A stretch of 64,000 nucleotides of DNA from Ahrensia sp. (GTDB lineage: Bacteria; Pseudomonadota; Alphaproteobacteria; Rhizobiales; Rhizobiaceae): the NCBI GenBank assembly GCA_028817895.1, contig JAPPOQ010000009.1, positions 124,001-188,000 of the forward strand, in the 5' to 3' direction. Of this stretch, positions 23,469-61,013 are shown one piece after another; position 1 is the stretch's first letter; the number at the start of each line of letters is the position of its first letter. Position numbers and translations under genes: made by a program. The notes under the pieces were generated by a model, which saw nothing but the letters and a program-made list of their open reading frames with translations, had not been told where the DNA came from and did not search any database.

Positions 23469-23996
23469 TCAGTCGCGTCGAACGTCCCCATCCGCTGCGG
23501 CAATGATTGTCTCGCCCATTGTCCTGCCCAGGGCACGATCGGACAAGATGCCGAACGGATCGAAGATGCACTTTGCTGTTGTGATGAACTCCGGACTAAC
23601 CCGGCGCGTCGTTTCTATCGGGGCCTCGTCCGAGAGAATATCGAACTGGAGAGGCTTGATGCTGCGCTTCAACACCGCAGCGTGGAAGTCGCCAAAGCCG
23701 CGTTTCAGCAGCCCAAGAATGGCGGTCCGCGGCGCGATCCCGGCTTCGATCATCTCGTCATAGACGGCGACCTGCCCCTTTGCAGGTGGATAGACCAACA
23801 GTCTCACAACAACACACTTACGGGTCTCGGCTCCTGACGTAACTGCCGGGGGTTTGACGTGCCACTTCCCCACTCCTTTCTTCTTTTCGGGAATCCGCTG
23901 TGCCTCAACATGGGCGGGACCTTCGGTTTCTTCTTCCGATATGCGCCGCTTGCGCTTGTTCGGATGCTCATAGCCACGCGGTTTGGTGATCCCCAT
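23469..23996 (-). CDS. virC2: VirC2-like conjugal transfer protein
   Basis: 175 aa; starts in the last base of the virC1 stop (TGATG), so translation is coupled. The first 60 residues are basic and low-complexity (KRKRRISEEETEG, PEKKKGVGKWHV). The rest resembles the ribbon-helix-helix domain of Agrobacterium VirC2 (VVVRLLVYPPAKGQVAVYDEMIEAGIAPRTAILGLLKRG region). VirC2 binds overdrive and border DNA together with VirC1 and raises T-strand production. The border-like site is 190 bases beyond virC1, consistent with this. Confidence 0.8.
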   Translation of the reverse strand: MGITKPRGYEHPNKRKRRISEEETEGPAHVEAQRIPEKKKGVGKWHVKPPAVTSGAETRKCVVVRLLVYPPAKGQVAVYDEMIEAGIAPRTAILGLLKRGFGDFHAAVLKRSIKPLQFDILSDEAPIETTRRVSPEFITTAKCIFDPFGILSDRALGRTMGETIIAAADGDVRRD

Positions 23997-24706
23997 CAGT
24001 TTTTCTCCACGCTCTCATCGAGTGCTTCCAGCAGATCGTTCGTCAGCGCCCGGGCTTCATCCATGGCGGCTGCAATGTGACCGGCGCTGATCCGTTTCAC
24101 GGGATCGTTCTTCAACTGCGCATGGATACGGTGCAGCAGTCCGCGCTTGCCAAGCGCGGCGAACGCGTCGCGATTGTGCAGTCGCGTTTCGCAGCACGGT
24201 AGTTCAGACAAGGCGTTCAGATCGTGCCTTTGGGAGACGGTCAGTTTTCTAACCGGAACCCGCTGGATGAGCAGGGCGGTCGTGATATCCATCGCCATCG
24301 ATTGATGCAGTTCGATCACATGTTCGAAGGTCGTCAGCGCCTGGGTCATGTCGAGCGTGGTCAGGGCCGAGGGGATGATGACCAGATCGGTGTTGATCAG
24401 ACAGGCATTGTTCAATTCCGATCCGCCGCCGCGTGTGTCGATGAGGGCATAACTGATACCCGCTTGCGAGGCCTCCTCGAAGGCTTTTTCGAATGATCGC
24501 AGATCATCGGCTTCATGGACCGTGATGCCGTCAGACCACGTGTCTGCCTTCATTGCGTTCTCGCGCCATTCGAGCAGCGGGAAGTTTTCATCGGCGTCGA
24601 TCAGGGCCACGCGTTTGCCCATCTGCGACAAGACCGATGCCACCGCCATGACCGCCGTGGTCTTGCCTGCACCGCCCTTGAAGGACGCGAATGTGATTGA
24701 CTTCAT
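23996..24706 (-). CDS. virC1: VirC1-like ParA ATPase
   Basis: 236 aa from ATG 24706, which aligns with the start of Agrobacterium VirC1; a GTG 4 codons upstream (24718) is possible. Deviant Walker A FKGGAGKTTAVMA, ALIDADENFPLLEWRENA and YALIDTRGGGSELNN are VirC1/ParA motifs. RQRVPVRKLTVSQR and RDAFAALGKRGLLH track VirC1 specifically rather than plasmid-partition ParA. VirC1 recruits the relaxosome to the membrane channel and stimulates relaxase cleavage. It is divergent from virD1 with the border-like repeat in between. Confidence 0.9.
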   Translation of the reverse strand: MKSITFASFKGGAGKTTAVMAVASVLSQMGKRVALIDADENFPLLEWRENAMKADTWSDGITVHEADDLRSFEKAFEEASQAGISYALIDTRGGGSELNNACLINTDLVIIPSALTTLDMTQALTTFEHVIELHQSMAMDITTALLIQRVPVRKLTVSQRHDLNALSELPCCETRLHNRDAFAALGKRGLLHRIHAQLKNDPVKRISAGHIAAAMDEARALTNDLLEALDESVEKN

Positions 24707-24892
24707 CGGCGCTGTCACGTCTCAGATTCACTGCAATCCGAAAATCCACCCAACCGGTAATCCACTTATCGGCCAATCTATCCAACCGATTGTCTACCGA
24801 TCCATGTTCCTTCCTGGCAGCATGAAATGCTCAACGCAGTGAAGGAGAAGCCAGTAGCACCGCTCCCGATTGGAACGCTAAGGGGAGAGGGA

Positions 24893-24940
24893 GGGTACGT
24901 GGCAGGATATATGCAAAGGTAGCACCTTTGCCACGTACCC
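24893..24940. other. Predicted oriT with T-DNA-border-like nick site
   Basis: Perfect 12-bp arms GGGTACGTGGCA (24893-24904) and TGCCACGTACCC (24929-24940) flank an inner hairpin CAAAGGT-AGC-ACCTTTG. At 24900-24912 the plus strand reads TGGCAGGATATAT, identical over 13 bases to the core of Agrobacterium T-DNA borders and related to RP4-type nic sites. By analogy the VirD2-type relaxase would cut the minus strand between G and C of TATCCTG/CCA (between complements of 24903 and 24902), so the virC/ssb side would lead. It lies between divergent virC1 and virD1. Confidence 0.88.
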
Positions 24941-25039: not shown

Positions 25040-25546
25040 TTGGCCGGAACCGTCACGAGAAAGACACTGCGCTCACAGCGAAAACAAGAGGCCTGGAAGG
25101 GCAGCGCGCCGCATCGCGGGAAGTGGAAAGCAACCGGGAACAAAGGCGACAGCGACGCGACCGGCTTCGTTACCGTCAGCGTGAAGATGCGTCCAGCCGA
25201 AAGGGAAGAGTTCAAACGCGTTTGCAAAGCGCTCGGCGTGACGCCGAACAGGGCGATGCGGACAATGGTCAGACGGTCAGCCGGGTTTCTCGAGACCGGC
25301 AATCCCGTGATGGCCGATCTTGCCACCATCACCCGGCAGATCAGCGGTGTCTCGACCAATATCAACCAGATCGCCAAGGCCGCGAACCGGACCCGCGAGC
25401 CGGACTACCAGGCTTTCCTGGAAGATCGTCTGGAGCTGGGTGCGCATCTGTCCCGTCTCGAGGACATCATCCGCGAGATCGTCAACGTCGGACGCCGCCG
25501 TTCGGACGGATTGCGCCGCCTCGAAGAGCTGATGGAATCCGCATGA
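25040..25546 (+). CDS. virD1: VirD1-like relaxosome accessory protein
   Basis: 168 aa from a TTG start at 25040 (GGGGGA just upstream); no ATG suits the conserved part. Basic N-terminus, then FVTVSVKMRPAEREEFKRVCKALGVTPNRAMRTMVRR, a ribbon-helix-helix-like region, and ITRQISGVSTNINQIAKAAN, as in VirD1/MobC. VirD1 is needed with VirD2 for nicking double-stranded border DNA. Its end overlaps virD2 (ATGA). The exact start is unsure because the upstream frame is open. Confidence 0.85.
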   Translation: MAGTVTRKTLRSQRKQEAWKGSAPHRGKWKATGNKGDSDATGFVTVSVKMRPAEREEFKRVCKALGVTPNRAMRTMVRRSAGFLETGNPVMADLATITRQISGVSTNINQIAKAANRTREPDYQAFLEDRLELGAHLSRLEDIIREIVNVGRRRSDGLRRLEELMESA

Positions 25547-27444
25547 GCATCCATGTGCCGGACCTTCTAATCAAAGCGTCCGCACACCCCGAGCGTGTGA
25601 CGCCCGTCGATATCGTCATGGGAGACCACTGGGCCGAGATCGATCTCGGCAATCCAATGCGGCTATCGCTGCTCAGGGCCGTGCTGAAAAAACAGGAGCA
25701 GGGACCGGCACCCAAAGGTGGAGGAGGGCGGTCGGCACGGTTGAGACTGCCGCTTTCCATCGTCAACCGGTCACCGCAGGCGATGGTCAAGGTCGTGAGA
25801 AAGGGCGGCACCATCAATGCGCGCGGCATGCGCGATCAGATGGCCTATCTGTCGAAGGATGGCGATGCGAGACTGGAGCGGTCGGAACGGTATTTCGGAA
25901 TCGAACTGGACGAAGGGGCGCAGGAGCGTCTCCGTCGGTCCTGGGGTCTTGCCGGCGAGACGAAGACACGCTCCGACAAGACAACACATTTTGTTGTCAG
26001 CTTTCCCCGTGGCACGGATCATCGCGCAGCCTATTGCGCCGGACGTTCCTGGGCCGAAGAGATGTTCGCCTCGGGCACCTATGGCGACGTGTTTGATTAT
26101 TACACGGCGTTTCACACCGACCGTGCACACCCGCATATGCATGTCGTGGTCAATCGCCGTGGCATGGAAAATGGCGACTGGCTAAAGGTCTCCAGGCGCA
26201 GTGCGTTCAACTATGACGAATTGCGTGCTATGCAGGTCGAGGTTGCCGCCCGCGAAGGCATCCATCTTGAGGCGACCCCGCGGCTGTCACGCGGTCTCAC
26301 GGACCGCCCGGCACCGGATGCGGAGATCCGCAGGGCCGAAAGGGAAAGGAGGGAACCGCAGGCTCCCTCCCATACGCAAGTGACGGCTCTCAGATCGGCA
26401 GCAACGGTCGTTCTTTACAGTCAGCAGATGACTGCGGATGCGACCCTTCTGCGGGAACACCATCCCGAACTTTCCGTGATGATTGGCAAGATGGCCGGGA
26501 TCATCCTGGCCGGACAAGCAGTCCCGGCCGCCTCTCCAAATGAAAGACCACACCTCACCCTGAATGAGGCCAGACGGCAAAGCGAGTTCATCATGTCCAG
26601 ACGACGCGAAATCCTTGCAGGCATCCGGGAAATCGATGCTGAAATCTCCACTATTCCCATCGGCAAGGAACGCTCGCAGCTGGAGCAGGATGCCTCCCGC
26701 ATCAAGGCCGAAGCGGCTGAGTTCATACCCGATGCCGTGGAATTGTCCGGTCACATGCGGACGAACACCAAAGGCTATTATCTGGGAATCGAGGCACGGG
26801 ACGGAATCGAACGGGAACTCAAGGAGCGCGCCGACAGGGAAGCGGGGCAGCTGGCGTTAGCGGCGGGCATCGACCCGGAGAAGTTCACCAGCCGCTTTGC
26901 AGGCTCCAGGCCCGCATCGCAGGAACTGGCCGATACCTGGCGCAAGGACGAGCTCGAAGACATCCAGAAGAACCTCACCTACCAGCCGGTGACACCACCG
27001 GACAAACAACGGCAGCTCGCACAGGCCGCCTATGATGATCTGCATCGCAATGCGCTTCAGACCTATCGCAAGGCGGAGCGTGAACTGGACGCGCATGCGG
27101 CCCGCAAGAAGGAACTGCACCGGATTGCGAGGCTGATTCGGGAAGGCAGGCGGCTGGGGATCGACACTGAGAACGTTTTTCAGAAGACGGTCAAGGAGAC
27201 TCTTCACACCGTAGAACTACGCGAGCTGGAAGCGGGAAAACCGCGTGCTTTCCGACATGTCACGCAAGACGCTGATCAACAGCGTGCCCTGAGCCGGCGC
27301 TATCTGGAGGCCGAGCAACGGGATGCGGAGGGTGCGCGCAAGCTTCAGCTGACGGCGGCCCTCGCAACGATCGAAAGGGATGCGGATCTCGCCGCGCAAC
27401 GATCAGGCGGGACAAGCCGGAAAGACCGGGGGCTCGATCGCTGA
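25543..27444 (+). CDS. virD2: VirD2-type relaxase
   Basis: 633 aa from ATG 25543. The relaxase domain lies at about 90-260: catalytic Tyr102 in MRDQMAYLSKDG, TTHFVVSFPRGT, and the metal-binding histidine motif HTDRAHPHMHVVVNRR (H191, H196, H198, H200). These align closely with Agrobacterium VirD2, but there is an about 70-residue N-terminal extension before motif I. After the conserved LTDRP the long C-terminal half is charged and helical, without an obvious plant-type nuclear signal. It should nick the border-like site and stay bound to the transferred strand. The stop overlaps virD4. Confidence 0.93.
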   Translation: MSIHVPDLLIKASAHPERVTPVDIVMGDHWAEIDLGNPMRLSLLRAVLKKQEQGPAPKGGGGRSARLRLPLSIVNRSPQAMVKVVRKGGTINARGMRDQMAYLSKDGDARLERSERYFGIELDEGAQERLRRSWGLAGETKTRSDKTTHFVVSFPRGTDHRAAYCAGRSWAEEMFASGTYGDVFDYYTAFHTDRAHPHMHVVVNRRGMENGDWLKVSRRSAFNYDELRAMQVEVAAREGIHLEATPRLSRGLTDRPAPDAEIRRAERERREPQAPSHTQVTALRSAATVVLYSQQMTADATLLREHHPELSVMIGKMAGIILAGQAVPAASPNERPHLTLNEARRQSEFIMSRRREILAGIREIDAEISTIPIGKERSQLEQDASRIKAEAAEFIPDAVELSGHMRTNTKGYYLGIEARDGIERELKERADREAGQLALAAGIDPEKFTSRFAGSRPASQELADTWRKDELEDIQKNLTYQPVTPPDKQRQLAQAAYDDLHRNALQTYRKAERELDAHAARKKELHRIARLIREGRRLGIDTENVFQKTVKETLHTVELRELEAGKPRAFRHVTQDADQQRALSRRYLEAEQRDAEGARKLQLTAALATIERDADLAAQRSGGTSRKDRGLDR

Positions 27445-29288
27445 TGAAACGCGCAACGAGCAAGGTCCTTCGGGACGCGCTAGTCTTCGGGTTCGTAGGC
27501 TTGACGGCCGGTGGGGTCGCCGGGATCGTGATCGCAAGCGCCTGGGCCGTCGTCACGCAGGGCGGCAAGTTCACCGATGTCGAGGGTTTTGAAATCCTCG
27601 ACCACGCTCCGTGGGTTGTCGGCAACATGCAGGAACCTTTCGAGACCGGCGTGCTGATCATCGGTGCCGCGGGGCTGATCGGCATGACCGGCTTCATCGC
27701 GATCTCCTACAGGCCGCAGCTCACGAGCCACGGATCGGCCAGATGGGCAACAAAGACCGAGTTGAAAAAAGCCGGACTGGCCGTGAAGCTCAATGACCTG
27801 TCCGGTCCGATCTACGCGAAACTGAGCGCACCGAAAAGGAGGGGTGAATTCGTCACTTCGAGTGACATCCCGCACAGCTTCATCTGCGCCCCGACCGGAT
27901 CGGGCAAGGGGGTGGGTATCGTCATCCCGACCCTTCTGACCTATGGCGGATCGGTTATTTGTCTCGACGTGAAGGGCGAGAATTTCGACAAAACCGCTCG
28001 TGCACGAGCGGCTATCGGTGACCGGATCTTCCGCTTCTCGCCCCTTGATGAAGACAACCGCTCGCACCGGTTCAATCCCCTCGACCGCATCGCGAACCTT
28101 TCCCCCGAGCGCCGTTTCACCGAAGCAAAGCGCATTGCGGAGAGCTTCATCGCCATGCCGGGCGACAATGTTCAGGGCTTCCTCGTCAGCGCCAAGGAGA
28201 TCCTTGCAGCGAGCGTCCTGGTCGTAATTGAGCGTGGAACTCCCACCATCGCGGCCATTTACGATCTCTTGAGCCAGGGTGGCGAATACAATGCGATGTT
28301 CGAAAAGCTCGCCTCTCAAACGGATGTTCCGGAATCAAAATCCATCTATTACCGAATGGCAGGAATCGCTGACAGAACCCTGTCGGCCTACATGTCGGTC
28401 CTTTTCGATGGCGGACTCGGCCTGTGGCGGGATGGTTTGGTCCGTGCCGCAACCGAAACGTCGGACTTCGATATCGCAAATCTCCGGAGAAAGCCCTCCA
28501 GCATCTATATCGTGGTCGCGCCGAACGATCTGGCTGTGCTGGCGCCTGTTGTCCGGCTGCTGTTTCAACAGACCGTTGCCATCCTTCAGACGACCGAACC
28601 AAAAAGGGACGAGCCCTATCCGGTTCTGTTCTTGCTGGATGAATTCCCGCAACTCGGCCGAATGACGGCACTCGGTCAGGCCATTTCGACGATCCGAAGT
28701 TATGGCGGCCGGATGATGATCGTCGCGCAGTCCCTGTCGAACCTGCGTGGGACATACGGTAATGATGGCGCGCAGAATTTCCTGGCCAATTGCCGGCTGC
28801 AGCTGTTCATGGCGCCGGCCGACAGTGAGACGCCGGACTATGTCTCAAAGGCCATCGGAAACTTCACCCGCAAGGCGCGCTCGAAATCCTGGATGATGGG
28901 ACAGATTGGAAAAAGCAATATTCAGGAAAGAGAGGAGGGGGCACGGCTTCTTCGGCCCGAAGAGCTTCGCAATCTCTCGGCAGATGAATGTGTGCTGCTG
29001 ATTCAGGATTCCAATCCGGTGAAGGCTCACAAGGTTCGCTATTTTGAGGATCGGTATCTGAAAACTGTATTCGTTGCCCAGGCTGGAGAAATGCCCCTTC
29101 CTCAAGCGTTGATGGCAAAACCATCAGTCACATCGACATTGAATTCGACCGGTCAGCCGATGGCGGCGTCCGATGAAGCAGTCGAAGAAAGCGACATCTC
29201 CCCGGAGGACTTCCGGATCATGAAATCGCATCAAACCGCCCTTCTCGACCGGGTCAGGCGCGTCAAGCAGAAGGTGTCATCCGCGTGA
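27444..29288 (+). CDS. virD4: VirD4 type IV coupling protein
   Basis: 614 aa; first base shared with the virD2 stop. Two N-terminal membrane segments (about 12-38 and 68-88), Walker A APTGSGKGVGIV (149-160), a DVKGENFDKTARARA segment, and Walker B YPVLFLLDEFPQLGRM. Length and motifs match VirD4/TraG. It delivers the VirD2-DNA complex to the VirB channel. It ends the virD1-virD2-virD4 run; the copper island begins about 125 bases later on the opposite strand. Confidence 0.95.
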   Translation: MKRATSKVLRDALVFGFVGLTAGGVAGIVIASAWAVVTQGGKFTDVEGFEILDHAPWVVGNMQEPFETGVLIIGAAGLIGMTGFIAISYRPQLTSHGSARWATKTELKKAGLAVKLNDLSGPIYAKLSAPKRRGEFVTSSDIPHSFICAPTGSGKGVGIVIPTLLTYGGSVICLDVKGENFDKTARARAAIGDRIFRFSPLDEDNRSHRFNPLDRIANLSPERRFTEAKRIAESFIAMPGDNVQGFLVSAKEILAASVLVVIERGTPTIAAIYDLLSQGGEYNAMFEKLASQTDVPESKSIYYRMAGIADRTLSAYMSVLFDGGLGLWRDGLVRAATETSDFDIANLRRKPSSIYIVVAPNDLAVLAPVVRLLFQQTVAILQTTEPKRDEPYPVLFLLDEFPQLGRMTALGQAISTIRSYGGRMMIVAQSLSNLRGTYGNDGAQNFLANCRLQLFMAPADSETPDYVSKAIGNFTRKARSKSWMMGQIGKSNIQEREEGARLLRPEELRNLSADECVLLIQDSNPVKAHKVRYFEDRYLKTVFVAQAGEMPLPQALMAKPSVTSTLNSTGQPMAASDEAVEESDISPEDFRIMKSHQTALLDRVRRVKQKVSSA

Positions 29289-42788: not shown

Positions 42789-43190
42789 TCAGGCGTTGGG
42801 TGGGCGGTGTAGAGCGGTCAGTTCACCGGCGATCAGTGGTTCAGTCCGCCAATCGAAAATACCATTGGAGAAAACCGGCTTGTCGCTGATGAAATCGGTG
42901 ACAATCATGGCGCTGGCGCAAACGGCCGAGCAGCATGTTTCAGCGCCATTGTGGGAGGAGTCCGCTGCGAGCGTCCCTTCCGATTCAGCTTGATCGGATT
43001 GGTTTTTGTGATGGCTGTGAGAACCACCAACATGATCCATCGTGCTGTTGCTTTCGACAGCTGCAATCGAGCCGCCTTGGTTATGCATGCCAGCGTGAGA
43101 CGCTGAAACGGGTGACAGAACCAGAGCCAGCAACATCAAAATACTGATTGCCAACCGTCTCGAAACTGCATGTAACACAATCCGTCTCAT
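42789..43190 (-). CDS. Secreted His/Cys-rich hypothetical protein
   Basis: 133 aa. Signal segment RLAISILMLLALVLSPVSASHA. The mature part has a His-rich stretch (GGSHSHHKNQ) and a CCSAVCASAM cluster, suggesting metal binding. Same layout as the protein at 33668-34009 (Cys cluster then a hydrophobic patch and Pro-rich end), though identity is low. Placed between a cytochrome c gene and a terminator in the copper island. Confidence 0.65.
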   Translation of the reverse strand: MRRIVLHAVSRRLAISILMLLALVLSPVSASHAGMHNQGGSIAAVESNSTMDHVGGSHSHHKNQSDQAESEGTLAADSSHNGAETCCSAVCASAMIVTDFISDKPVFSNGIFDWRTEPLIAGELTALHRPPNA

Positions 43191-43269
43191 TGCGCGTAGA
43201 TCATCTGGAACTCTCTCAATGTCAAGTCAAAACCCTGCAAGGTTTATCACGGTTGGGGGATAAAGCTCA

Positions 43270-44366: not shown

Positions 44367-44372
44367 ACCGAC

Positions 44373-44403
44373 TATTTAGAGGTTCCCCCTGCTGGAAGGT
44401 CAA
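44373..44403 (-). promoter_or_regulatory. CueR-type promoter of the cueR unit
   Basis: Minus strand: TTGACC (44398-44403), 19-bp spacer with TTCCAGCAGGGGGAA, -10 TAAATA (44373-44378). Closely matches the other three boxes of the island and the enterobacterial CueR consensus. Confidence 0.85.
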
Positions 44404-51719: not shown

Positions 51720-52724
51720 TTAAATCGGCTGGCCGATATTTCGCTGCCTTTCCAAGCTAAACTCCAGCACGCCGCGTTTTCCATCTTTCCGCCCGACCTG
51801 AACGATCAGATCGATCGTGGACCGGGCGTATTCGACCACATCCTGTTTTGTCAGCCTGACCCCTGTCTGGAGTACCATAAGTGCCAACCGCTCCAATGCC
51901 AGATTTGGGCTGTCGGCATGGATGGTGGAGATCGAGCCGGGATGTCCGGTGTTGATGGCCTCCAGAAAATTATACGCCTCCGGTCCTCGAAGTTCACCGA
52001 CGATCAGACGGTCGGGCCGCATCCGCAGAGAACTCTCCAGGAGCTTGGCAGTGGAACGGTCTGAACCTTCGCGCCGGCTGGCGACCAGTGCTACCGAGTT
52101 CTTATGGGTTGGTCTGAGTTCGATGGCGTCTTCGATTGTTACGAGCCGCTCATCCTTGTGACACATGCCGAGCAGGGCGCGAGCGATCGTGGTCTTTCCC
52201 GAAGATGTACCGCCCGAGATCAGGATGTTCAGCCGGTTCCCGATTGCCGACTTTAGAACAGCCGGCAGATCCCCTTTTTTGAGATGGTCTTGAAGCACCT
52301 CATGGGACTTGGCTTTTTCGGCATCGACATCGATCGACTTGCCCTGGATGAATTCTATGTCCTCGGGCTTCAGAACCCGCGACACATATTTCCTGATTGA
52401 GAGGGATACGCCTCTCTCGATTGCCGGTGGAACCACGACCTGAACGCGCACATCGCTGCCGAAAACGAAGACACGGCCCGAGACGATCGGATGATCCTCT
52501 CCTAGTGCATTGCCGGTCTCTCCGGCCAGATTATTGCCCAGGGAATGGATGTCATGTTCGGCGATCCCGACATCAACCACTTCCTGCATGTGTGGCTTGT
52601 TCGCGTGCTCGACGAAAATCCGGCTGTCGGGATTGATGACCACCTCATTTAGATCGTCGGATGTGAGCAGCGTTTGCAGCGGTTTGAGACCCTGTTCGGC
52701 ATAGGAGTTGACGGTCTCGTTCAC
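51720..52724 (-). CDS. virB11: VirB11 secretion ATPase
   Basis: 334 aa. Walker A GGTSSGKTTI (171-180), the His and Asp boxes (GELRGPEAYNFLEAINTGHPGSISTIHADS), and the N-terminal domain typical of hexameric VirB11. It powers pilus assembly and DNA transfer with VirB4 and VirD4. Start overlaps the virB10 stop. It is the last gene of the virB operon and faces the copper island. Confidence 0.95.
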   Translation of the reverse strand: MNETVNSYAEQGLKPLQTLLTSDDLNEVVINPDSRIFVEHANKPHMQEVVDVGIAEHDIHSLGNNLAGETGNALGEDHPIVSGRVFVFGSDVRVQVVVPPAIERGVSLSIRKYVSRVLKPEDIEFIQGKSIDVDAEKAKSHEVLQDHLKKGDLPAVLKSAIGNRLNILISGGTSSGKTTIARALLGMCHKDERLVTIEDAIELRPTHKNSVALVASRREGSDRSTAKLLESSLRMRPDRLIVGELRGPEAYNFLEAINTGHPGSISTIHADSPNLALERLALMVLQTGVRLTKQDVVEYARSTIDLIVQVGRKDGKRGVLEFSLERQRNIGQPI

Positions 52725-54115
52725 GAAAACACCAGGTCCTGATTGACGAGAACATTCATCAGCGTGCCCTGCGGGATGCGGATGATCGGCGGAAGTTTCA
52801 GATACTCCTCCAGCACGTCTTCGGTCGTGTCTTTCAAGTCGTCTGACGCATCCTGCGCGACACCGGTCGCAGCACTCGTCGTCGTGTTCCCGTTTGCGTC
52901 ATCACTGGCCAGGAAGGAGGGAATGGCTGCGATGCTGGTGATCAGCACCGCCGTTCCGAAGCGCTGGAAAAACCGCGTGTCCACATTGCCCGCCTGTCCA
53001 CCGCGGCCGAGGCGGTCGATCCCGGTGGCCGCCAGCTTTACCGATTTCCCTTCCGGAGTGATGGCCCGGTTCCAGGCAATCAATACCCGTTTCTGGGCAA
53101 TCGAGATCTTTGGATTATAGGCCCCGATCAATCTCGTGCCCGCCGGCATCAGGATTGTCTGCCCGTCGAAGGAATAGACGGGCCTGGTCACCTGCGCGCG
53201 GATATTGCCCGGCAGTTGCGTATCGATGGCGGTTTCCAGCACGGCCGAGATGATCGTGCCCTGAACGATTGTCTTTGAAACATCCCCGAGATCACCGGCC
53301 CGCACCGTTTCCCATCCTTGAGAGGCGTTGGCCTTCAGGAACTGTTGGTTGTCGGAGAGCTCACGAATACCGGTTTCATCCTCCTTGGTGCCCGAAGTCG
53401 ACCTTCCTTCCTCAGATTCATCGTAGACATTGCCGTCCGAGGTCATGCGTTTCAGAAGTTCGGCATCCCGCGCGGCGCGGCGTTCTTCCAGCAGCTTGCG
53501 CAATCTTTCGCGTTCTTCCGCCTCGCGCCGCAACCGTTCTTGCTCGGCAAGTTGATCTGCGCTTGGGCCAGTTGGAACCTGAGTCTGGACGCGCAATGCA
53601 TCGAGTTGTGCCTTCAGCAATTGTTCGCGTGTTTCAGCTTCCGCCCGCAACGCCGCCGCCTGCTGATCGAGCAGTCTCGCGATATCATCGGCCGTCGGGC
53701 CGCCTTGCGGTGCCGGCCTGTTGGCGATCTCTCGCAGTGCTTTCTCAAGCGCCTCGATGCGGGCTTTCGCTTCGGGATCCAGATCCGTGGTGGTGACGGG
53801 TGCTGCGCGAGCCGGAATGACCGGTTCGGAAATTGATGGTTCGACGGCGATCTCGGGCTCGCGTTGAATCTGTGTGGAGATTCCGGAATTGTCGACTTTC
53901 GAGGTTTGCTGAATGTCCTCGGACGTGGACGTGTTCAGCCCCAGAAGCTTTCGTGTCTGTTCCGGAAAGACGACGAATGTCGCTGCGAGGGCCAACAGAA
54001 CCAGGAAGAAGAAGATGGCCCAGACGGGAGAGCCATGGCGGCTTTTACCCGACATGCGCTCCCGTCTTGCGCGAAGCCGATCATCTTCTTCAATGTTGGA
54101 TGTCCCATCGGCCAT
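52721..54115 (-). CDS. virB10: VirB10 inner-to-outer membrane channel scaffold
   Basis: 464 aa. Cytoplasmic N-terminus, single membrane segment (SPVWAIFFFLVLLALAATFVVF), then a long Glu/Arg-rich coiled coil (RLRREAEERERLRKLLEE) and the C-terminal beta barrel domain with SVDGQTILMPAGTRLIGAYN-like sequence and RIPQGTLMNVLVNQDLVF end. It spans both membranes and relays energy to the outer channel. Three bases after virB9. Confidence 0.95.
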   Translation of the reverse strand: MADGTSNIEEDDRLRARRERMSGKSRHGSPVWAIFFFLVLLALAATFVVFPEQTRKLLGLNTSTSEDIQQTSKVDNSGISTQIQREPEIAVEPSISEPVIPARAAPVTTTDLDPEAKARIEALEKALREIANRPAPQGGPTADDIARLLDQQAAALRAEAETREQLLKAQLDALRVQTQVPTGPSADQLAEQERLRREAEERERLRKLLEERRAARDAELLKRMTSDGNVYDESEEGRSTSGTKEDETGIRELSDNQQFLKANASQGWETVRAGDLGDVSKTIVQGTIISAVLETAIDTQLPGNIRAQVTRPVYSFDGQTILMPAGTRLIGAYNPKISIAQKRVLIAWNRAITPEGKSVKLAATGIDRLGRGGQAGNVDTRFFQRFGTAVLITSIAAIPSFLASDDANGNTTTSAATGVAQDASDDLKDTTEDVLEEYLKLPPIIRIPQGTLMNVLVNQDLVFS

Positions 54116-54118
54116 ACA

Positions 54119-54871
54119 TCACCCCAGGATGTTCGAGAGCGGATCGGTGGGTGAGGGGCCGTTCGACACGCAGATCGCATCTGACCCAATTCGCACCGTC
54201 CAGTTCTTGTGGACGCCATCGGCGATGATAGTCCGGCCGGCCGTTCGCGAATTGACGATGTATTCGCGGCCCGCCTTGCCGACCCGGAATATGCCGGGCA
54301 GGGGTGCGTCATTCGGGAAGCGGAAGAAGGTCTGCTTGCCGTTGTCGTAGACTTCGATCGGAGAGAATGCCGCTTCACCGGCAACCCAGTAGTCGAAGTT
54401 CTTGCCGCCGTTGGATGTCGAGGCGCTGTGATACTCTGAAACCACGCCGGTCGGATAGCGGAACGTCGTCCGGAAGTTGTGGTTCTGGCGGTGGCCCGCC
54501 CTTCCGCGATGGGCGCGCAGCTCGAAGGAGTAGACGCGCCTGTCCGTATAGACCGTCATGTTGGTGACCGCGTCCTGATTGAGCGGCTTGATGGAAATCA
54601 CGTCACCGCGTTTCAGGCGGATGATCTGCCACGATGCGCTGTCGCCGACCTGGATGGATTCGACGACCTCACCTTTGCCGAACTGCACCGTCGAGATGAA
54701 GTTGGTGTGCATGTCCAGCCGGTAGACGGTGTTTTCGTTGTAGACGAACTGCTTGATGCGGCCGTCTGCGGGGAGCGGAACCGGCCGCTGCTCTGCAATC
54801 GCCGGTATGGTTGTTGCGACCAGAAGCGTGGCCGCAAGTGCAATCCCGAGTGTGTTGGGTTCCTTGCTCAT
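54119..54871 (-). CDS. virB9: VirB9 outer-membrane channel protein
   Basis: 250 aa with signal peptide (LGIALAATLLVATTIPAIA). Conserved VYRLDMHTNFISTVQFGKGEVVESIQVGDS region and C-terminal ADGVHKNWTVRIGSDAICV match VirB9. It forms the core complex with VirB7-like lipoprotein and VirB10. Start overlaps virB8. Confidence 0.94.
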   Translation of the reverse strand: MSKEPNTLGIALAATLLVATTIPAIAEQRPVPLPADGRIKQFVYNENTVYRLDMHTNFISTVQFGKGEVVESIQVGDSASWQIIRLKRGDVISIKPLNQDAVTNMTVYTDRRVYSFELRAHRGRAGHRQNHNFRTTFRYPTGVVSEYHSASTSNGGKNFDYWVAGEAAFSPIEVYDNGKQTFFRFPNDAPLPGIFRVGKAGREYIVNSRTAGRTIIADGVHKNWTVRIGSDAICVSNGPSPTDPLSNILG

Positions 54872-55551
54872 TGAGTTGCTCCCCTGTTCGATAGAGTCTC
54901 CGCGTCGACGCGGTAATTGCTGACCATGAAGCCGAGCGGGTTTTTCCAGACGTCTTCGAGATTGCGTTCCACCCGTGGCTGAAATTCGAAACCGACGGTC
55001 GCCACGAAATCCCGCTCAACCGGTCGTTCTCCCTCGGTTTCAAGTGTCTTGCGAAACCGCAGCTGAGCGGTTCCCTCGCTTAGCTGAGCGATCGAGATTA
55101 CCCTGACGAGCAACCGGGAGCGTGCGGTGTAGACGTCCGGCGGATAATTCTCCGCCCCCTTGGCCCAGAGCGCCACCAGGGACGAACGCGCCTGGCCTTG
55201 CGACCGGCTCAGGACGTCTGGAATGCGGGTCTGGTTGTCGGCAATGTCGTAGGTCTCGCGGTCGGTCACATAGGAGACCAGTTCAGCCTGCCGGACCGCT
55301 TCCTGTTCGGCCAGGCTTGCCGGACGGACCTGAACGATCCTCTCGGCTTCGCCTGTCGTGCGGTCGACCATCACCACAAAGGGTTTGGTTTCCTTCAACG
55401 GAAGGAGCGCGATCACAGCGGCAATCGCAATGATGGCCATGGACAGCGCCAGGATGGCCACGACCATCCAGCGATTGCGCTGAAATTGAAGCTGGAAGAA
55501 AACCTCGTCTTCGAATGTGTAGGCGATTTGGTCAGTGGTTCGCTCTGCCAT
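54868..55551 (-). CDS. virB8: VirB8 inner-membrane assembly protein
   Basis: 227 aa from ATG 55551 (GGAAGGGG upstream; an ATG six codons earlier is possible). Short cytoplasmic N-terminus, one membrane segment (VVAILALSMAIIAIAAVIALLPL), NTF2-like periplasmic domain with DRETYDIADNQTRIPDVLSRS and VNYR-type C-terminus (MVSNYRVD). No virB7 gene stands before it, unlike the Agrobacterium order. Confidence 0.94.
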   Translation of the reverse strand: MAERTTDQIAYTFEDEVFFQLQFQRNRWMVVAILALSMAIIAIAAVIALLPLKETKPFVVMVDRTTGEAERIVQVRPASLAEQEAVRQAELVSYVTDRETYDIADNQTRIPDVLSRSQGQARSSLVALWAKGAENYPPDVYTARSRLLVRVISIAQLSEGTAQLRFRKTLETEGERPVERDFVATVGFEFQPRVERNLEDVWKNPLGFMVSNYRVDAETLSNRGATQ

Positions 55552-55610
55552 GCCCGCCCCTTCCGCCATCGCTGTTTGAGCTCAATCCCCGCCTGCCTGT
55601 CGATCCCGGC

Positions 55611-56765
55611 CTATCCATTGCGGCCTCCATCGAGTGCGGTGGTGGTTGCGGCATCGACCTTTGACACCCTTTCGGTTGCACCACTTTTCATCGCCTCGAA
55701 CTGGATGGCTCTCCTGTCTCCTGACGACTTTGCCCGGCCACCCGGCTGAAAGAAGGAGGGGTCGGAAAAGCGTTGCCGGTCGCGGCTCATGCGCGCGGCC
55801 TGGGTGACGAAGGCGGCGGTCTGCGCGACCCGTCCGCCACCGTTTTCGCGAACGGTCTCGGCCGCCTGTCGTCCCGCATCGTAGCGGGCGACCCCGCTAT
55901 AGGCGGTGCGCACCGGTGCGCTGACGGTGTCCTTCGCGTTGCGGCTCGCAGCCCGGGCTTCGGCAATGCCGGTTCCGGTCGTGACGATGGTTCCTGCAAG
56001 CCCCGTGACCAGGCTTGGAATGTTGAACATCATGAAGATCGCCGCGAAGATCACGATGATGAAACCGGCCGCCTGGGACATTTCCGAGGCGCCCTGGACC
56101 GTGCCGATCATCGTCTGACCGACACCGACCACCGCGCCCATCACCCCGGCCAGGACCAGCGGTATGAGGGCGAAGCCGATGGTGAATCGCGTCCACGACT
56201 CGAAGAGACTTCGCGTCGCGGAAAACAGCAGACAGGCGATGAAGACCGGGGCGAAGGAGACCGACATCGCCAGTCCCACCTTGGCGAGTGCCGAGACCAG
56301 AATGGCAACGCAGGCCATGAGCGCTCCAAGAACGATGAGAACGACGGCGGTGAGGCTGATGCCCAGCCACCCGCTTTCCTCGTTGGCACGATCCGAGAAA
56401 TCGAAGATCTCGGTCACCATCTGGTCGAGGGCGGAGTTCAGGTTGGGAGATCCCGTCGCGCCGATGAGAGCGGCACCGATCGATCCGGGCGTGTTGGTCA
56501 ATATGTCGTAGATGGGCTGAAACTGAGACCAGGTCGTCGCCACCGAAAGCACCATGACGTAGCGGACGCCCCATGTGAGGTAGCTCGACATCCGGATCGG
56601 CACGAACTGGAACAGCGCATTGGCGGCAATGAGGGCAAGACCAACCAGACCGCCGGCCTGGATCATCGTGGTCACAGGGCCGGCAAAGCCCGTGAACACG
56701 GTCTGCGCATAATTGCCGATGGCAGCGTCGATCAGATCGAGGGTCTCTGTGATGTAGCTCGCCAC
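55611..56765 (-). CDS. virB6: VirB6 polytopic channel protein
   Basis: 384 aa with about six membrane segments (FAGPVTTMIQAGGLVGLALIAANALF, WLGISLTAVVLIVLGALMACVAIL, LAMSVSFAPVFIACLLF). C-terminal third is polar and Arg/Gly-rich. It matches VirB6/TrbL in topology and in the SFAPVFI region. The inner-membrane part of the DNA channel. It lies 3 bases after the unknown periplasmic gene. Confidence 0.92.
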   Translation of the reverse strand: MASYITETLDLIDAAIGNYAQTVFTGFAGPVTTMIQAGGLVGLALIAANALFQFVPIRMSSYLTWGVRYVMVLSVATTWSQFQPIYDILTNTPGSIGAALIGATGSPNLNSALDQMVTEIFDFSDRANEESGWLGISLTAVVLIVLGALMACVAILVSALAKVGLAMSVSFAPVFIACLLFSATRSLFESWTRFTIGFALIPLVLAGVMGAVVGVGQTMIGTVQGASEMSQAAGFIIVIFAAIFMMFNIPSLVTGLAGTIVTTGTGIAEARAASRNAKDTVSAPVRTAYSGVARYDAGRQAAETVRENGGGRVAQTAAFVTQAARMSRDRQRFSDPSFFQPGGRAKSSGDRRAIQFEAMKSGATERVSKVDAATTTALDGGRNG

Positions 56766-56768
56766 GCC

Positions 56769-57218
56769 CTATCCCTTTACTTTGAGATCGATGACGCCCA
56801 GCCCTTCGCAATAGTCGAGGACTTCCCGCCTTTTGACCGCGTTGAAACCCTGCGCCTGAAGATCGAGCATGTGCGGGCGCAGTTGCCGGTTGCTCTTGTC
56901 CGCCAGATCGGCGGGAATTTTCGAGCCGATGGCCTCCCAGTCACGTCGCCCGTCAAGGCAGGACAGATCGGCGGTCTCGCCGGCCGCCGCGGCATCGCAG
57001 ATCCGTCTGATTTCCTCGTTTTCCCACTGATAGACATAGGCCAGCACGATGTTGCGCATGGTCGCGTTATGCGTGAGGCGCTTCATGGCTTGCTTTGCCC
57101 TGTCGCTCTTTACGGGGAAGCCGCTGCAATGAAAGTTCGTGCTGTGGTCGGATGCAGCCGGTGCCGCAATCGAAAGCAGGATCGCTGCTGCAACGGGAAT
57201 CGCGAATGCCCTGATCAT
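56769..57218 (-). CDS. Periplasmic hypothetical protein between virB5 and virB6
   Basis: 149 aa with signal peptide (AFAIPVAAAILLSIAAPAASDH). Four cysteines in the mature part (FHCSG, RRICDA, LSCLDG, DYCEG) could form two disulfides. Overlaps the virB5 stop. No homology recognised with confidence. Position in the operon where other systems encode exclusion (Eex) or VirB7-type proteins suggests an entry-exclusion or pilus accessory role; inference only. Confidence 0.75.
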   Translation of the reverse strand: MIRAFAIPVAAAILLSIAAPAASDHSTNFHCSGFPVKSDRAKQAMKRLTHNATMRNIVLAYVYQWENEEIRRICDAAAAGETADLSCLDGRRDWEAIGSKIPADLADKSNRQLRPHMLDLQAQGFNAVKRREVLDYCEGLGVIDLKVKG

Positions 57219-57952
57219 TTCCTGTCACCGGTTTTCATGAAGTTGCGGGAGGCCTGGCCATCTCGCGCGATCTGCAGCGCCTGCATGCCGGTCGCATTGG
57301 TCTGTGCGGATTGCACGCGCAGGAGTTCCAGCAGCAGCACAGCGACTTCAGCATTGACCCGCGTGTTGAAGTCGACGCTGGCCTTCAGATCGGCGGTGGA
57401 ATCGATTCCGTCGACTAGCGTATTGATCCTCTGCACTGCCGCGCTGGCCCGCCGGTAACTGTCTTCGGCAGTTGCAACTGCCGCCAGACCCGATCCGGCA
57501 AGCGACGCGATGGCTTTGTCCGCCGGCACGTCGGAGGAATCGAAACTGGCCAGATCGCCGAGATTGAAGCGCGACTTCAATTCGGAAATCACTGTGTTCA
57601 TATTGCCGATGTTTCCGGCAATGTCGCCACCTCGAACCGCAGCCGACACGATCGACTGGAGATCGGAGGCCGCCTGACGCGCACTCTTTTCCGCGTTACC
57701 GTTCAAGATCGAGGATATTCCCTTGGCGCCTGTGATCGCCTGCAGGCGGTGCTGCATGTTTGTGAGCTGCTCCTGCATCGTGGTCAGCTGCTTGATCTGC
57801 TCCTCATAGTCCTTCAGCTGCTGCTGAAGCTGCGCGATGACCTGGGCAATCTGCGACGTATCGATAACCGGAATGCCCTGGGCGCTTGTGGGATGAACCG
57901 GCAGGACCAGAAGCACGAGGCCCAGCGCCATGGATCTTGCATATGTCTTCAT
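57215..57952 (-). CDS. virB5: VirB5 minor pilin
   Basis: 245 aa with signal peptide (SMALGLVLLVLPVHPTSAQG). A long coiled coil (QVIAQLQQQLKDYEEQIKQLTTMQEQLTNMQHRL) and C-terminal helices are typical of VirB5/TraC pilus tip proteins. Overlaps the lipoprotein gene upstream (ATGA) and the unknown gene downstream. Confidence 0.92.
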   Translation of the reverse strand: MKTYARSMALGLVLLVLPVHPTSAQGIPVIDTSQIAQVIAQLQQQLKDYEEQIKQLTTMQEQLTNMQHRLQAITGAKGISSILNGNAEKSARQAASDLQSIVSAAVRGGDIAGNIGNMNTVISELKSRFNLGDLASFDSSDVPADKAIASLAGSGLAAVATAEDSYRRASAAVQRINTLVDGIDSTADLKASVDFNTRVNAEVAVLLLELLRVQSAQTNATGMQALQIARDGQASRNFMKTGDRK

Positions 57953-58092
57953 GTCACGGCCTTTCCATCGTCTTTGAATGTCTCGTTGAGAGGCTTGAAA
58001 TCGCAGGCGCAGGGCGATGTGTATTCGGTGGGAATACCGGCGCAGCCGGCCAGGATGGCGAGGGTGAGCATCAGCAGCGAGATTGTCTTCAA
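57949..58092 (-). CDS. 47-aa VirB7-like lipoprotein (TTG start)
   Basis: TTG at 58090-58092 overlaps the virB4 stop (TTGA), and the TGA overlaps the virB5 ATG. Begins with a short hydrophobic stretch and lipobox LAGC (Cys17), then CACDF and a polar tail. Size and lipobox fit VirB7/TrwH, which anchors VirB9 at the outer membrane. Its position after virB4 differs from the Agrobacterium order, but no other virB7 candidate exists in the operon. An Eex-type lipoprotein is the alternative. Confidence 0.7.
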   Translation of the reverse strand: MKTISLLMLTLAILAGCAGIPTEYTSPCACDFKPLNETFKDDGKAVT

Positions 58093-60452
58093 CGGTTCAG
58101 ATCCTTCCAGAAATCGGGATTGTCTCTCCAGTCCGCGGGCGCGTTTTCGCCCTTGCCGCCGCCAAGGACGGAAAGCAGAGGACCCATGGCGGAAAGATCC
58201 ATGTCGATGATGGTGCTGTCGTCACCGGATTGCATCAGAGCCAGCCGGTGTCCGACATTCGATTGCATCAAGAAATCGCGTTCGCGATCCGTCAGATTGA
58301 GAGGGGCCAGCTCTTCGGCGGTGTTCCGGTTCGACGGATAGATGAGACGCGTCACCACGCTCTCGAGAATGGCGCCGCCGGCCGCGCTTTCGGCAATATG
58401 CGACACACGCTGTGTGAGAAGAATGACGGCGACATTCTTCTTGCGCATCGTCAGCATCCAGTCTTTCAGTCGCGACTGGAAGTAGGGATCGTCGAGAAGT
58501 TTCCAGGCCTCGTCCATGACGAGCAGGGTAGGGCGCTCATCCTCGACGATCCGCTCGATGCGGCGGAAGACATAGGAGAGCCATGCGGTTCTCACATCGT
58601 CATTGTCGAAGATCTCCGACAGATCGAAAGCGGTGATGTCGCTGTCGAAACTCAAACCGTCCCGTCCCTTGCCGTTGAAAAGCCATTCGAACTGTCCGCC
58701 GCTGTCCCACCGGCCGAGCCTCGTGTGCAGATCCTTGCCATCGTCGACCGCGCGCAGTTGCGACCGGAAATGGGAAATCGTCTGGAGGTTTCTGGCGGCC
58801 TTCGCATTGTCGCGGCAGGCCTTGGCCAGAGCTTCGATCTGCACCGGTGAGAGGTCACCCTCTTTCGGCTTCAGCATGGCTTCGAGCCAGTCCGTCAGCC
58901 ATGCGGCACCGCGCTCATCGGATTCCGCCTCGAAGGGATTGAAACCGGTATTCTCTCCCATCTTTACCGGCGTGTAGTGGCCACCAAGCGCCCGGACCGG
59001 CATCTCGAAGCCCTGATCCTTGTCGAAGACGATGATGCGCGGATTGAGCCGTGTGGCCTGGGCCAGAAGGAAAGCCGTTCCAAGGGTTTTGCCCGATCCG
59101 GTCTGGCCAAGAACAAGCGAATGGCCGACCGCGCGCTCGTCTCTCTGACCGGGAAGATGGAAATTGAACCGATAGGGTTCGCCGTTCCCGATCGGCAGAA
59201 TCGTGATTGCCTCGCCCCATGGCGAGAGGGCTTTGTCGCGCCCTCTCGCCGCTCCGTGCAACGCACCGAGCTCGGCAAAGTTTCGCGACGAGATCATGCC
59301 GGCCCGGGTGCGATAGGAATAGTTGCCCGGCTGCTGGGCGAAGAAGGCGGCACGGGCAGCGAAGTTCTCGCGGATCATCGATCCGCCGATCCCGGTGACG
59401 GCTCTCGTGATGTTGCCAAGCGTGCCGTCGAGTTCCGCTTCGCTGTCAGCAAACACGCAGATCGTGCAATGGTGATTGCCGAAAGCCACGCGGCCCGACG
59501 CCTGATCGTCTGCCGCCTCTTCAAGCTGGAATTGAAGAGATCGTGCGGCGTCTTCGGCCGCCGCCATTTGCCGGGCGACCCGCTGGATTTTCTGGAGCGC
59601 CTCGATCCGCTCGCCCGGGGTGAAGGAGTTCGTCACCACCATGTCGGTGGCCAGATCGAGACCGTCGAGGATGCCGGCGAAGGTTTCGCCGGGATAATCC
59701 TTCAAAGTGACGATGGCACCATATCTGGTGTTTCCCGAATGGGATCCGAACACCGTGAAGGCATCCCCGTGAAACAGCACCGGCGCGTTGGCAATAAGAT
59801 CGTTGAGAGGGGTAAACCGGCGGCCTGGTGTCATCGGATAATAGTCGCCGCATATGGTTGCGCGCAGCAGACCCAGCCATTCGCCGCCAGAAATGGTCAT
59901 TCTGCGCGGATTGGTCTTCGCCAGCGTCTCCATGAAGGCGGTAACGATCTGGTTCAGCCGGATTGCGCGTTTCTGGAGATTCTCTTCGGTCCGGGACCTG
60001 CCCCCTGACAGCCTGGTCCAAAGGCCGACGGCTTTCGATGGCCTGATCGTGACCGTGACCAGCGTGGTGCGATGGCGAAGACCGGCAACGCCGAGAAACC
60101 CTTGCCATCTGCGGTCGATCGCTGCGGCAAAGGTCTTGTCTTCCACCACGGGATCGAGGGCAGGGGCTGTCCCGGTGGATATGCGATGCACGTAGAATCC
60201 GACATCCGGTCTTTGCTGTGCAACGAGGGAAGAAAAGGCAGCGGCTATCCCAGTGATCTCAGCTTCGTCGGCGGTGCTGGCGGAGATCCCGTCAACGGCG
60301 AAGGATGCCATCACATCTCCGTCCCGTAACAGGATGGTCTGATCGTCGACGGCCGTGATGTATGGAAGTCCGCGAGCAAGCAACTCCTCACTCTCGCGGC
60401 CACTCTCTCTCACAGAGTGCTCGGCAAGAGACGTCTTGCTATCAAGCACCAT
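58089..60452 (-). CDS. virB4: VirB4 ATPase
   Basis: 787 aa. Walker A VLGQTGSGKTLGTAF, Walker B PTLLVMDEAWKLL, DVRTAWLSYVFRRIERIV and LLTQRVSHIAESAAGG are standard VirB4 motifs. N-terminal domain has MTISGGEWLGLLRATICGDYYP. It energises pilus assembly. Overlaps virB3 at its start by 11 bases and the small lipoprotein at its end. Confidence 0.95.
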   Translation of the reverse strand: MVLDSKTSLAEHSVRESGRESEELLARGLPYITAVDDQTILLRDGDVMASFAVDGISASTADEAEITGIAAAFSSLVAQQRPDVGFYVHRISTGTAPALDPVVEDKTFAAAIDRRWQGFLGVAGLRHRTTLVTVTIRPSKAVGLWTRLSGGRSRTEENLQKRAIRLNQIVTAFMETLAKTNPRRMTISGGEWLGLLRATICGDYYPMTPGRRFTPLNDLIANAPVLFHGDAFTVFGSHSGNTRYGAIVTLKDYPGETFAGILDGLDLATDMVVTNSFTPGERIEALQKIQRVARQMAAAEDAARSLQFQLEEAADDQASGRVAFGNHHCTICVFADSEAELDGTLGNITRAVTGIGGSMIRENFAARAAFFAQQPGNYSYRTRAGMISSRNFAELGALHGAARGRDKALSPWGEAITILPIGNGEPYRFNFHLPGQRDERAVGHSLVLGQTGSGKTLGTAFLLAQATRLNPRIIVFDKDQGFEMPVRALGGHYTPVKMGENTGFNPFEAESDERGAAWLTDWLEAMLKPKEGDLSPVQIEALAKACRDNAKAARNLQTISHFRSQLRAVDDGKDLHTRLGRWDSGGQFEWLFNGKGRDGLSFDSDITAFDLSEIFDNDDVRTAWLSYVFRRIERIVEDERPTLLVMDEAWKLLDDPYFQSRLKDWMLTMRKKNVAVILLTQRVSHIAESAAGGAILESVVTRLIYPSNRNTAEELAPLNLTDRERDFLMQSNVGHRLALMQSGDDSTIIDMDLSAMGPLLSVLGGGKGENAPADWRDNPDFWKDLNR

Positions 60453-60717
60453 AGGTCACCCCCTTGCCTCTGACCCAGGAGGCGGTGAGTGGAGTGACGC
60501 GGATGACGGTGAAGATCACATCAAAGATGCGTGGATCGTAGGCGGCCAGCAGTCGCAGTGCGATGTATCCGGTAATCGCACTCACCCCGAAATAGATGAG
60601 CGACAGCGTCGCGATGAATCCTCCGACCACGACCAGCATCAGGACGATGACATAGGTCATGGGCAGTCCCATCAGCGACACCGGGCGGGTCAATCCTCTG
60701 AAGACGGGCGTGGCCAA
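60442..60717 (-). CDS. virB3: VirB3 inner-membrane protein
   Basis: 91 aa from TTG at 60717, chosen for TAGGAG 9 bases upstream and the conserved N-terminus ATPVFRGLTRPVSLMGLP. Two membrane segments (YVIVLMLVVVGGFIATLSLIYFG, TGYIALRLLAAYD) then a polar C-terminus. VirB3 is a pilus assembly partner of VirB4, which follows with an overlap. Confidence 0.9.
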   Translation of the reverse strand: MATPVFRGLTRPVSLMGLPMTYVIVLMLVVVGGFIATLSLIYFGVSAITGYIALRLLAAYDPRIFDVIFTVIRVTPLTASWVRGKGVTYGA

Positions 60718-60728
60718 GGGTCGAACTC

Positions 60729-61013
60729 CTAGAAACCAGCTAGAATGGTCGCCGCGCCAAACAGGATGACCAGGCCGATGACGACCGAGCCGGCATAGAG
60801 CCAGTTCATCCGGCCCGTCAGAAACAGGATGCCGACGGCCGCGAGAGCGACGAGACCGAGGGCGCGGCCCACGGGACCGGTAAGCGCCGTGCCAATCTGC
60901 TGCAGCATCGTGGTGATGGGCGACAGATCCTGGGCCGCTGCCGGTGAGGTGAAGAGGAGTGTTGCGATCAGGGTCAGACCGAGCGTCTTCGCCCACGAGT
61001 TCAAAATTCCCAT
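60729..61013 (-). CDS. virB2: VirB2 major pilin precursor
   Basis: 94 aa. Long signal (GLTLIATLLFTSPAAAQ), then LSPITTMLQQIGTALTGPVGRALGLVALAAVGILFLTG, two membrane helices and NWLYAGSVVIGLVILFG. Classic VirB2 layout. Overlaps virB1 by 13 bases. Confidence 0.93.
   Translation of the reverse strand: MGILNSWAKTLGLTLIATLLFTSPAAAQDLSPITTMLQQIGTALTGPVGRALGLVALAAVGILFLTGRMNWLYAGSVVIGLVILFGAATILAGF

What the first reader, a model, noticed from the sequence alone, without database searches (positions are those of the whole stretch)
24893..24940. A T-DNA border core inside a perfect inverted repeat, between virC1 and virD1
The plus strand at 24900-24912 is TGGCAGGATATAT, a 13/13 match to the conserved core of Agrobacterium T-DNA borders, and it sits in the left arm/loop of a perfect 12-bp inverted repeat with an inner 7-bp hairpin. 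It lies between divergent virC1/virC2 and virD1/virD2/virD4 genes, all with clear Agrobacterium vir homology, and a full virB operon is in the same window. The set looks like a conjugative element that uses a border-type site as its own oriT: a possible relative of the ancestor of T-DNA transfer, or a system derived from it.
Basis: partly seen in the sequence, partly recalled or inferred. Interest (0 to 1): 0.92.

Follow-up and report, generated by a model that had tools for sequence, protein, structure and literature searches.

The report
Border-type transfer origin between vir genes
A bacterial plasmid seems to start its own transfer to other bacteria at a DNA site whose core is the same as the edge of the DNA that Agrobacterium sends into plants, and its transfer genes are close cousins of the plant-transfer genes.

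Summary
In detail: TGGCAGGATATAT is at 24900-24912, in a perfect 12-bp inverted repeat around an 8-bp hairpin, between divergent virC2-virC1 and virD1-relaxase-virD4. Best explanation: the plasmid's own oriT for its VirD2-like MOBP relaxase. Of 45 genome hits to a relaxed core-plus-hairpin pattern, 32 have a virD1 match starting 111-256 bp downstream. The hairpin covaries. Nine more hits stand alone, without virD1/virD2 relatives; four of these lie near plasmid replication initiators. The contig carries repC. The outer repeat is an accessory: 17 of 43 sites at P<=0.05. In a VirC1+VirD1+VirD2 tree the window's clade is sister to the T-DNA lineage plus one more row, 99/94, but an AU test does not reject one hairpin clade (p 0.29). 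No second border was found in the genome, so whole-plasmid conjugation fits, not a T-DNA. The IncP-nick/border likeness is long known (recalled); I found no description of this oriT family in the open papers searched. No cleavage or transfer was shown here. In passing: RolB-bearing, border-flanked units on legume-symbiont plasmids.

The parts
24900..24912 (+). T-DNA-border-type core TGGCAGGATATAT; its minus strand carries the MOBP nick sequence TATCCTGC
   Evidence: nick consensus from passages of PMC3772185
24902..24903 (-). predicted nick (ATCCTG^CC on the minus strand); the transferred 5' end would lead towards virC1
   Evidence: inference from RP4/VirD2 and the sequence; exact bond recalled; not tested
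24913..24920 (.). left arm of the inner hairpin (GCAAAGGT)
24924..24931 (.). right arm of the inner hairpin (ACCTTTGC)
24893..24904 (.). left arm of the outer inverted repeat
24929..24940 (.). right arm of the outer inverted repeat
23996..24718 (-). virC1 (ParA-like ATPase)
   Evidence: Pfam VirC1 1.4e-78; NCBIfam VirC1 1.6e-79, below its cut-off
23469..23996 (-). virC2-like
   Evidence: Pfam VirC2 2.4e-4, under the curated cut-off; NCBIfam VirC2 8.7e-6, under its cut-off
25040..25546 (+). virD1/mobC accessory relaxosome gene (start codon uncertain)
   Evidence: Pfam VirD1 1.3e-17, MobC 1.4e-8
25543..27444 (+). VirD2-like MOBP relaxase, 633 aa (start inferred), HUH motif in HTDRAHPHMHVVV
   Evidence: Pfam Relaxase; NCBIfam VirD2 8.9e-53, below the equivalog cut-off; 40% to the pTB1 relaxase
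27444..29288 (+). virD4 coupling protein
   Evidence: NCBIfam VirD4 over its cut-off
51720..61705 (-). virB cluster: B11, B10, B9, B8, B6, B5, B4, B3, B2, B1
   Evidence: Pfam domains; virB7 not found

Best explanation
24893-24940 is the origin of transfer of a plasmid (repC on the same contig) with a VirB/VirD4 system. Shown by comparison: the core and the inner hairpin form a conserved unit in a fixed place upstream of virD1, and also occur alone on contigs without virD1/virD2 relatives, some with plasmid replication genes. Inferred: VirD1 and the VirD2-like relaxase bind the hairpin, nick the minus strand at ATCCTG^CC (between 24903 and 24902), stay on the 5' end, and VirD4/VirB send the strand out virC side first; VirC1/VirC2 help assemble the relaxosome. 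In the window's clade an outer repeat brackets the nick; its two arms would end up at opposite ends of the transferred strand, so it could hold the ends together for rejoining or serve a protein dimer (inference, weak).
For: Relaxase-first searches, blind to the motif: the site is present in 6 of 6 plasmids fetched out of the best 15 hits and in the six best of 14 genomes by E-value, own genome included, one (G122) with a changed last core base. Motif-first search: 32 of 45 genome hits have a virD1 match starting 111-256 bp downstream on the same strand, 27 of these 32 with virC1 divergent (some of the 45 are the same elements as the motif-blind ones). The hairpin pair nearest the loop that the pattern left free is paired in 42 of 42 unique sites through T-A, A-T, G-C and one G-T, expected 18.4; covariation 0.271 against 0.109 shuffled, 0 of 500. 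Four stand-alone sites near Rep3/RPA initiators. repC on the same contig; one PF03432 relaxase on it. A plasmid with shown conjugation, pDSHI01 (PMC4886583 abstract and a passage), has a GGCAGGAAAT variant just upstream of its relaxase operon.
Against: No cleavage, binding or mating data. 13 of 45 pattern hits have no virD1 relative in the fetched stretch; 4 of these are in unrelated genomes and look like chance. Eight of 14 genomes with a relaxase hit lack the site in the fetched stretch, among them G261 with 39% identity over 314 aa. The hairpin set was partly gathered with a pattern that fixes 8 of 16 stem bases, so only four pairs count, and two of the four differ little from expectation (35 against 32.9, 38 against 33.0). 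Two of the five measures do not exceed the shuffles (70 and 159 of 500). The outer repeat is not significant in 26 of 43. The pDSHI01 site differs in the core and I saw no matching hairpin by eye.
Confidence: 0.87

Rival explanations
1. The inverted repeats are an operator or terminator for the divergent virC and virD1 promoters, and the border likeness is incidental.
For: The site lies in the divergent intergenic stretch; relaxosome proteins often regulate their own operons (general knowledge). The outer repeat could be such an operator.
Against: Nine stand-alone copies on stretches without virD1/virD2 relatives, 4 of them near replication initiators. No T run after the hairpin. The core is the known nick sequence.
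Confidence: 0.07
2. It is a border of a T-DNA-like segment sent to a non-bacterial host.
For: 13 of 13 border core, vir genes close to the T-DNA lineage.
Against: No second border found in the held genome at 1 mismatch except one hit in a LysR-family gene; second border block TGTAAA absent; no overdrive-like core near it (core recalled). The VirE2 search was silent, but so was its control, so it says nothing.
Confidence: 0.03
3. The element is derived from a T-DNA system: a border was taken back as an oriT and gained hairpins.
For: The AU test does not reject all hairpin rows as one clade (p 0.289), which would allow the border to be as old or older. The outgroup branches are long.
Against: In the best tree the hairpin rows surround the T-DNA clade and none of 200 bootstrap trees joins them. 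More distant plasmids (L078, L122, L124, pDSHI01) have GGCAGGA sites just upstream of the gene before their relaxase.
Confidence: 0.15

Closest known systems
RP4 (IncP-alpha) oriT and other MOBP oriTs with ATCCTG
   Same: nick sequence TATCCTGC, inverted repeat just 5' of it, relaxase and accessory gene adjacent (passages of PMC3772185)
   Different: virC1/virC2 present, VirD1 in place of TraJ (recalled), repeat of other sequence, nested outer repeat; core identical to T-DNA borders over 13 bp
T-DNA borders of Ti/Ri plasmids
   Same: 13-bp core, and a GT at the same distance (+18) as in 19 of 20 unique border-like sites of rhizobial plasmids and G261; virC-virD gene order
   Different: has hairpins, lies between virC1 and virD1, single copy; the virC1-virD1 gap of the one Ti plasmid read has no such site, only an ATCCTG in the other orientation without the hairpin; no second conserved block
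H. pylori tfs4 VirD2-like relaxase and its oriT
   Same: VirD2-like relaxase, inverted repeat next to ATCCTG upstream of the relaxase gene (passages)
   Different: other host and, by the paper, a relaxase distinct from the MOBP family; not compared by sequence here
vir-type conjugative RepABC plasmids of roseobacters (pTB1, pDSHI01)
   Same: virB/virD4/relaxase layout; pTB1 has the same core and hairpin; pDSHI01 conjugates (abstract)
   Different: the window plasmid is from another order as far as a same-genus contig titled Rhizobiaceae group tells (L015/L063), and in the clade next to the T-DNA lineage; pDSHI01 has a variant core

Membership tests
MOBP (ATCCTG-type) oriT | nick sequence (C/T)ATCCTG(C/T) | tested here: met
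   TATCCTGC on the minus strand, 24909-24902 (consensus)
MOBP (ATCCTG-type) oriT | inverted repeat 5' of the nick | tested here: met
   8-bp hairpin, covarying in relatives
MOBP (ATCCTG-type) oriT | adjacent MOBP relaxase and accessory gene | tested here: met
   Pfam Relaxase and VirD1/MobC
MOBP (ATCCTG-type) oriT | cleavage and mobilisation through the site | not testable with these tools
   -
T-DNA border | 13-bp core TGGCAGGATATAT | tested here: met
   (core from the finding and recall; one search showed only titles of papers that hold its last 12 bases without the first T)
T-DNA border | second conserved block TGTAAA(C/T) (recalled) | tested here: not met
   GGTAGCAC at that place; tails of 12 border-like sites score weakly against the oriT profile, P 0.003-0.19 gapped, 0.02-0.24 ungapped
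T-DNA border | direct pair flanking a segment | tested here: not met
   one site in the held genome, besides a 1-mismatch hit in a LysR-family gene
T-DNA border | overdrive beside it | tested here: not met
   TGTTTGTTTG with 1 mismatch: 2 window hits, none near the site, 3.21 expected (motif recalled)
VirD2 of T-DNA systems (NCBIfam equivalog) | score over the curated cut-off | tested here: not met
   180 bits against 623
Conjugative plasmid with a repABC-type replicon and VirB/VirD4 system | repC, relaxase, VirD4 and VirB set on one contig | tested here: met
   repC on C38; repA and repB not searched, virB7 not found, circularity not shown

The most novel reading that the evidence does not exclude
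T-DNA borders descend from this kind of oriT: a hairpin transfer origin between virC1 and virD1 moved out, was copied and lost its hairpin in one lineage, and the window's clade is the nearest living conjugative sister that still has the old arrangement, with the border core unchanged.
Probability: 0.45. Interest if true: 0.8.

Novelty: new variant of a known kind. Interest (0 to 1): 0.62.

Why it matters
How a bacterial mating system became a machine that sends DNA into plants is an old open question. A conjugative sister clade with an identical nick core, the same virC-virD arrangement and a defined oriT gives something to test directly: whether its relaxase cuts T-DNA borders in vitro and what the hairpin adds. 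The oriT pattern also lets passenger plasmids without their own VirD1/VirD2 be recognised.

Tried and rejected
Rejected or left open: (1) the outer 12-bp repeat as a defining feature; 17 of 43 sites reach P<=0.05, about 2 expected by chance. (2) A claim that the second border block is a remnant of the hairpin; profile scores are weak and register -2 scores slightly better than register 0; what stands is only the shared GT at +18. (3) A firm statement that hairpin oriTs are ancestral; AU p 0.289. The first tree, on the relaxase alone, left the backbone unresolved. (4) PF06504 was the wrong RepC family; nothing rang, control included; PF03428 then gave repC. (5) VirE2 absence cannot be claimed. 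(6) My hairpin labels failed (regular expression) and were not used. (7) Viral contigs gave two hits without vir relatives, dropped as chance. (8) No fold prediction and no covariance model was made.

Rows dropped: L038, L042, L055, L068, L072, L073 left out of the counts as chance hits (53 of 59 rows kept, 42 unique; the 42 include the stand-alone sites); L014 added by hand (43). In one search four short rows (L045, L009, L036, L060) were left out. The loci for the tree were chosen by me (45 plus the window); L122 fell out by my length rule, which leaves 45 rows. A1 holds 20 chosen sites.

Full report
Site. The minus strand carries TATCCTGC, the nick sequence of RP4 as given in passages of PMC3772185. 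The hairpin is 8 bp with an AGC loop; the outer arms are 12 bp and overlap it by three bases on the right. DNA folding of the minus strand joins the outer stem and part of the inner one and leaves TGCATATATCC as a one-sided bulge, with the predicted nick two bases into the outer stem (prediction only).

Replicon. The window is 124001-188000 of contig C38, 209 kb, in a 3.54-Mb genome. C38 has a repC (7.7e-60), one PF03432 relaxase (two more lie on other contigs, and a MobA/MobL relaxase on C5), an integrase near repC and copper-resistance cargo between the virD and virB blocks. repA and repB were not searched. Contig ends do not overlap, so circularity is not shown.

Relatives found by relaxase, not by motif. 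tblastn gave 633 plasmid records. Of the best 15 I fetched 6, and all 6 have GCAGGATATAT plus a hairpin, with the virD1 match starting 172-186 bp downstream; the sixteenth, Haematobacter pOT1-9, has the site about 4.8 kb away behind insertion sequences. In genomes, 14 of 301 gave a relaxase, own included. The six best by E-value (G000, G274, G122, G011, G243, G278) have the site, G122 with ATATAG for ATATAT and a different outer repeat. The other eight do not have it in the fetched stretch, though G261 is 39% identical over 314 aa. Five of those eight belong with the T-DNA lineage in the tree (G133, G031, G061, G154, and G261 as its sister); G036, G137, G165 lie outside in the tree.

Relatives found by motif. 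CAGGATATATNNNAANGTNNNACNTT gave 45 stretches in genome contigs. 32 have a virD1 match starting 111-256 bp downstream on the same strand, 27 of them with virC1 divergent. The 45 are not all independent: several are the same element as a motif-blind relative (one search lists identical rows). 13 have no virD1 match: 4 in Aquificales (two), Opitutaceae and Halobacillus contigs look like chance; 9 are stand-alone. I scanned 8 open frames from 6 of those 9: 4 loci (L033, L047, L049, L065) carry Rep3 or RPA initiators. Three of the nine (L033, L044, L049) are in assemblies that also gave a vir-linked site (titles). Only VirC, VirD and VirB11 relatives were searched for there, not all relaxase families, and some of these stretches are cut by contig ends.

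Structure by comparison. Among 42 unique sites the free pair nearest the loop is kept in all 42 by three pair types and one G-T, against 18.4 expected; the pair at the stem base in 31 against 16.8; two others 35 against 32.9 and 38 against 33.0; the other four pairs are fixed by the pattern. On 20 chosen sites 92.5% of cells pair and slid controls give 34-53%; the covariation score, cells paired and cells changed on both sides beat all 500 shuffles, the number of pairs changed on both sides and of further pair types do not. The outer repeat reaches P<=0.05 in 17 of 43, with nine arm sequences by my count; it is not significant in any of the nine vir-linked rows of the Jannaschia/Rhodobacteraceae clade (L029, L031, L034, L037, L040, L043, L056, L069, L071), while one stand-alone Jannaschia site (L044) has P 0.03. 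In the window's clade and in L067 it ends within 2 bases of the core; in the others with P<=0.05 it lies 5-13 bases off.

Tree. Hairpin rows are not one group in any of 200 bootstrap trees, yet the AU test does not reject one group (p 0.289). Outgroup branches are long and one outgroup row has only 36% of the columns.

Borders. The five rhizobial plasmids of that lineage have no hairpin site between virC1 and virD1 but several border-like sites elsewhere. The one Ti plasmid read has an ATCCTG in its virC1-virD1 gap in the other orientation, without the hairpin. 19 of 20 unique border-like sites, 8 of G261 among the 20, have GT at +18 from the first G of GGCAGG, where the oriT stem reads GT; the seven motif-blind relatives L003-L008 and L014 read so too (my count). 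Wider likeness is weak.

Literature. Passages of four roseobacter/Martelella papers name relaxase, VirD2 or conjugation; the word oriT occurs in none of three of them and once, as a general mention, in PMC4148953. PMC13386836 had none of the terms asked. PMC3832669 gives oriTs of other plasmid families (passages). Three further genome papers with one oriT mention each were seen as listing only. Searches (12 of 54 papers listed) showed no paper that describes this oriT; the library holds open papers only. The 1991 report of the likeness between IncP nick regions and T-DNA borders (Waters and colleagues) is recalled, not seen. So the core likeness is known; the hairpin oriT family, its likely passenger plasmids and its place beside the T-DNA lineage look new to me.

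Verdict.

Noticed in passing
R. johnstonii pRL7 (L109, record 43000-57000), S. meliloti pRRI128_4 (L110), R. leguminosarum pRLa12, M. mediterraneum R31 plasmid, B. quebecense pBq66S1MBb (L080-L108): Five plasmids of legume symbionts with a Ti-like virC-virD module carry 4 to 10 GGCAGGATATAT sites each at up to 1 mismatch, most on one strand and clustered; the backward control gave 0. Most fall in two classes, one followed by an overdrive-like tail (overdrive recalled). In pRL7 three pairs are 1.2-1.6 kb apart, and one pair in pRL7 and one in pRRI128_4 enclose a RolB/RolC-family gene (1.6e-18, 6.1e-17); the other four frames scanned gave no Pfam family over its cut-off. Passages of PMC4788154 call the pRL7 vir region scrambled, report no border homology in R. 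etli p42a and no transfer by strain 3841. Searches listed no report of these units; passages of PMC5606197 and PMC10410297 had none.
   Followed up: partly
   Followed up: partly
L033, L041, L044, L047, L049, L050, L051, L057, L065: Stand-alone copies of the oriT without virD1/virD2 relatives in the fetched stretch, four of them with replication initiators: likely passenger plasmids mobilised in trans.
   Followed up: partly
pDSHI01 60295-60301; L025, L026, L122: A variant core GGCAGGAAAT lies just upstream of the gene before the relaxase (L122, pDSHI01) or near the relaxase (L025, L026) of more distant systems, among them a plasmid with shown conjugation; no matching hairpin seen by eye.
   Followed up: no
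window 29414-49554: Copper-resistance cargo (multicopper oxidases, CopD, P-type ATPase) sits between the virD and virB blocks; pDSHI01 also has a metal-resistance block on one side of its virB genes, 8-28402 against 39177 onward.
   Followed up: no
window, 19 sites: TGGCAGGATATAT at up to 3 mismatches occurs 19 times against 8.2 expected, more than any of 100 shuffles; not explained.
   Followed up: no
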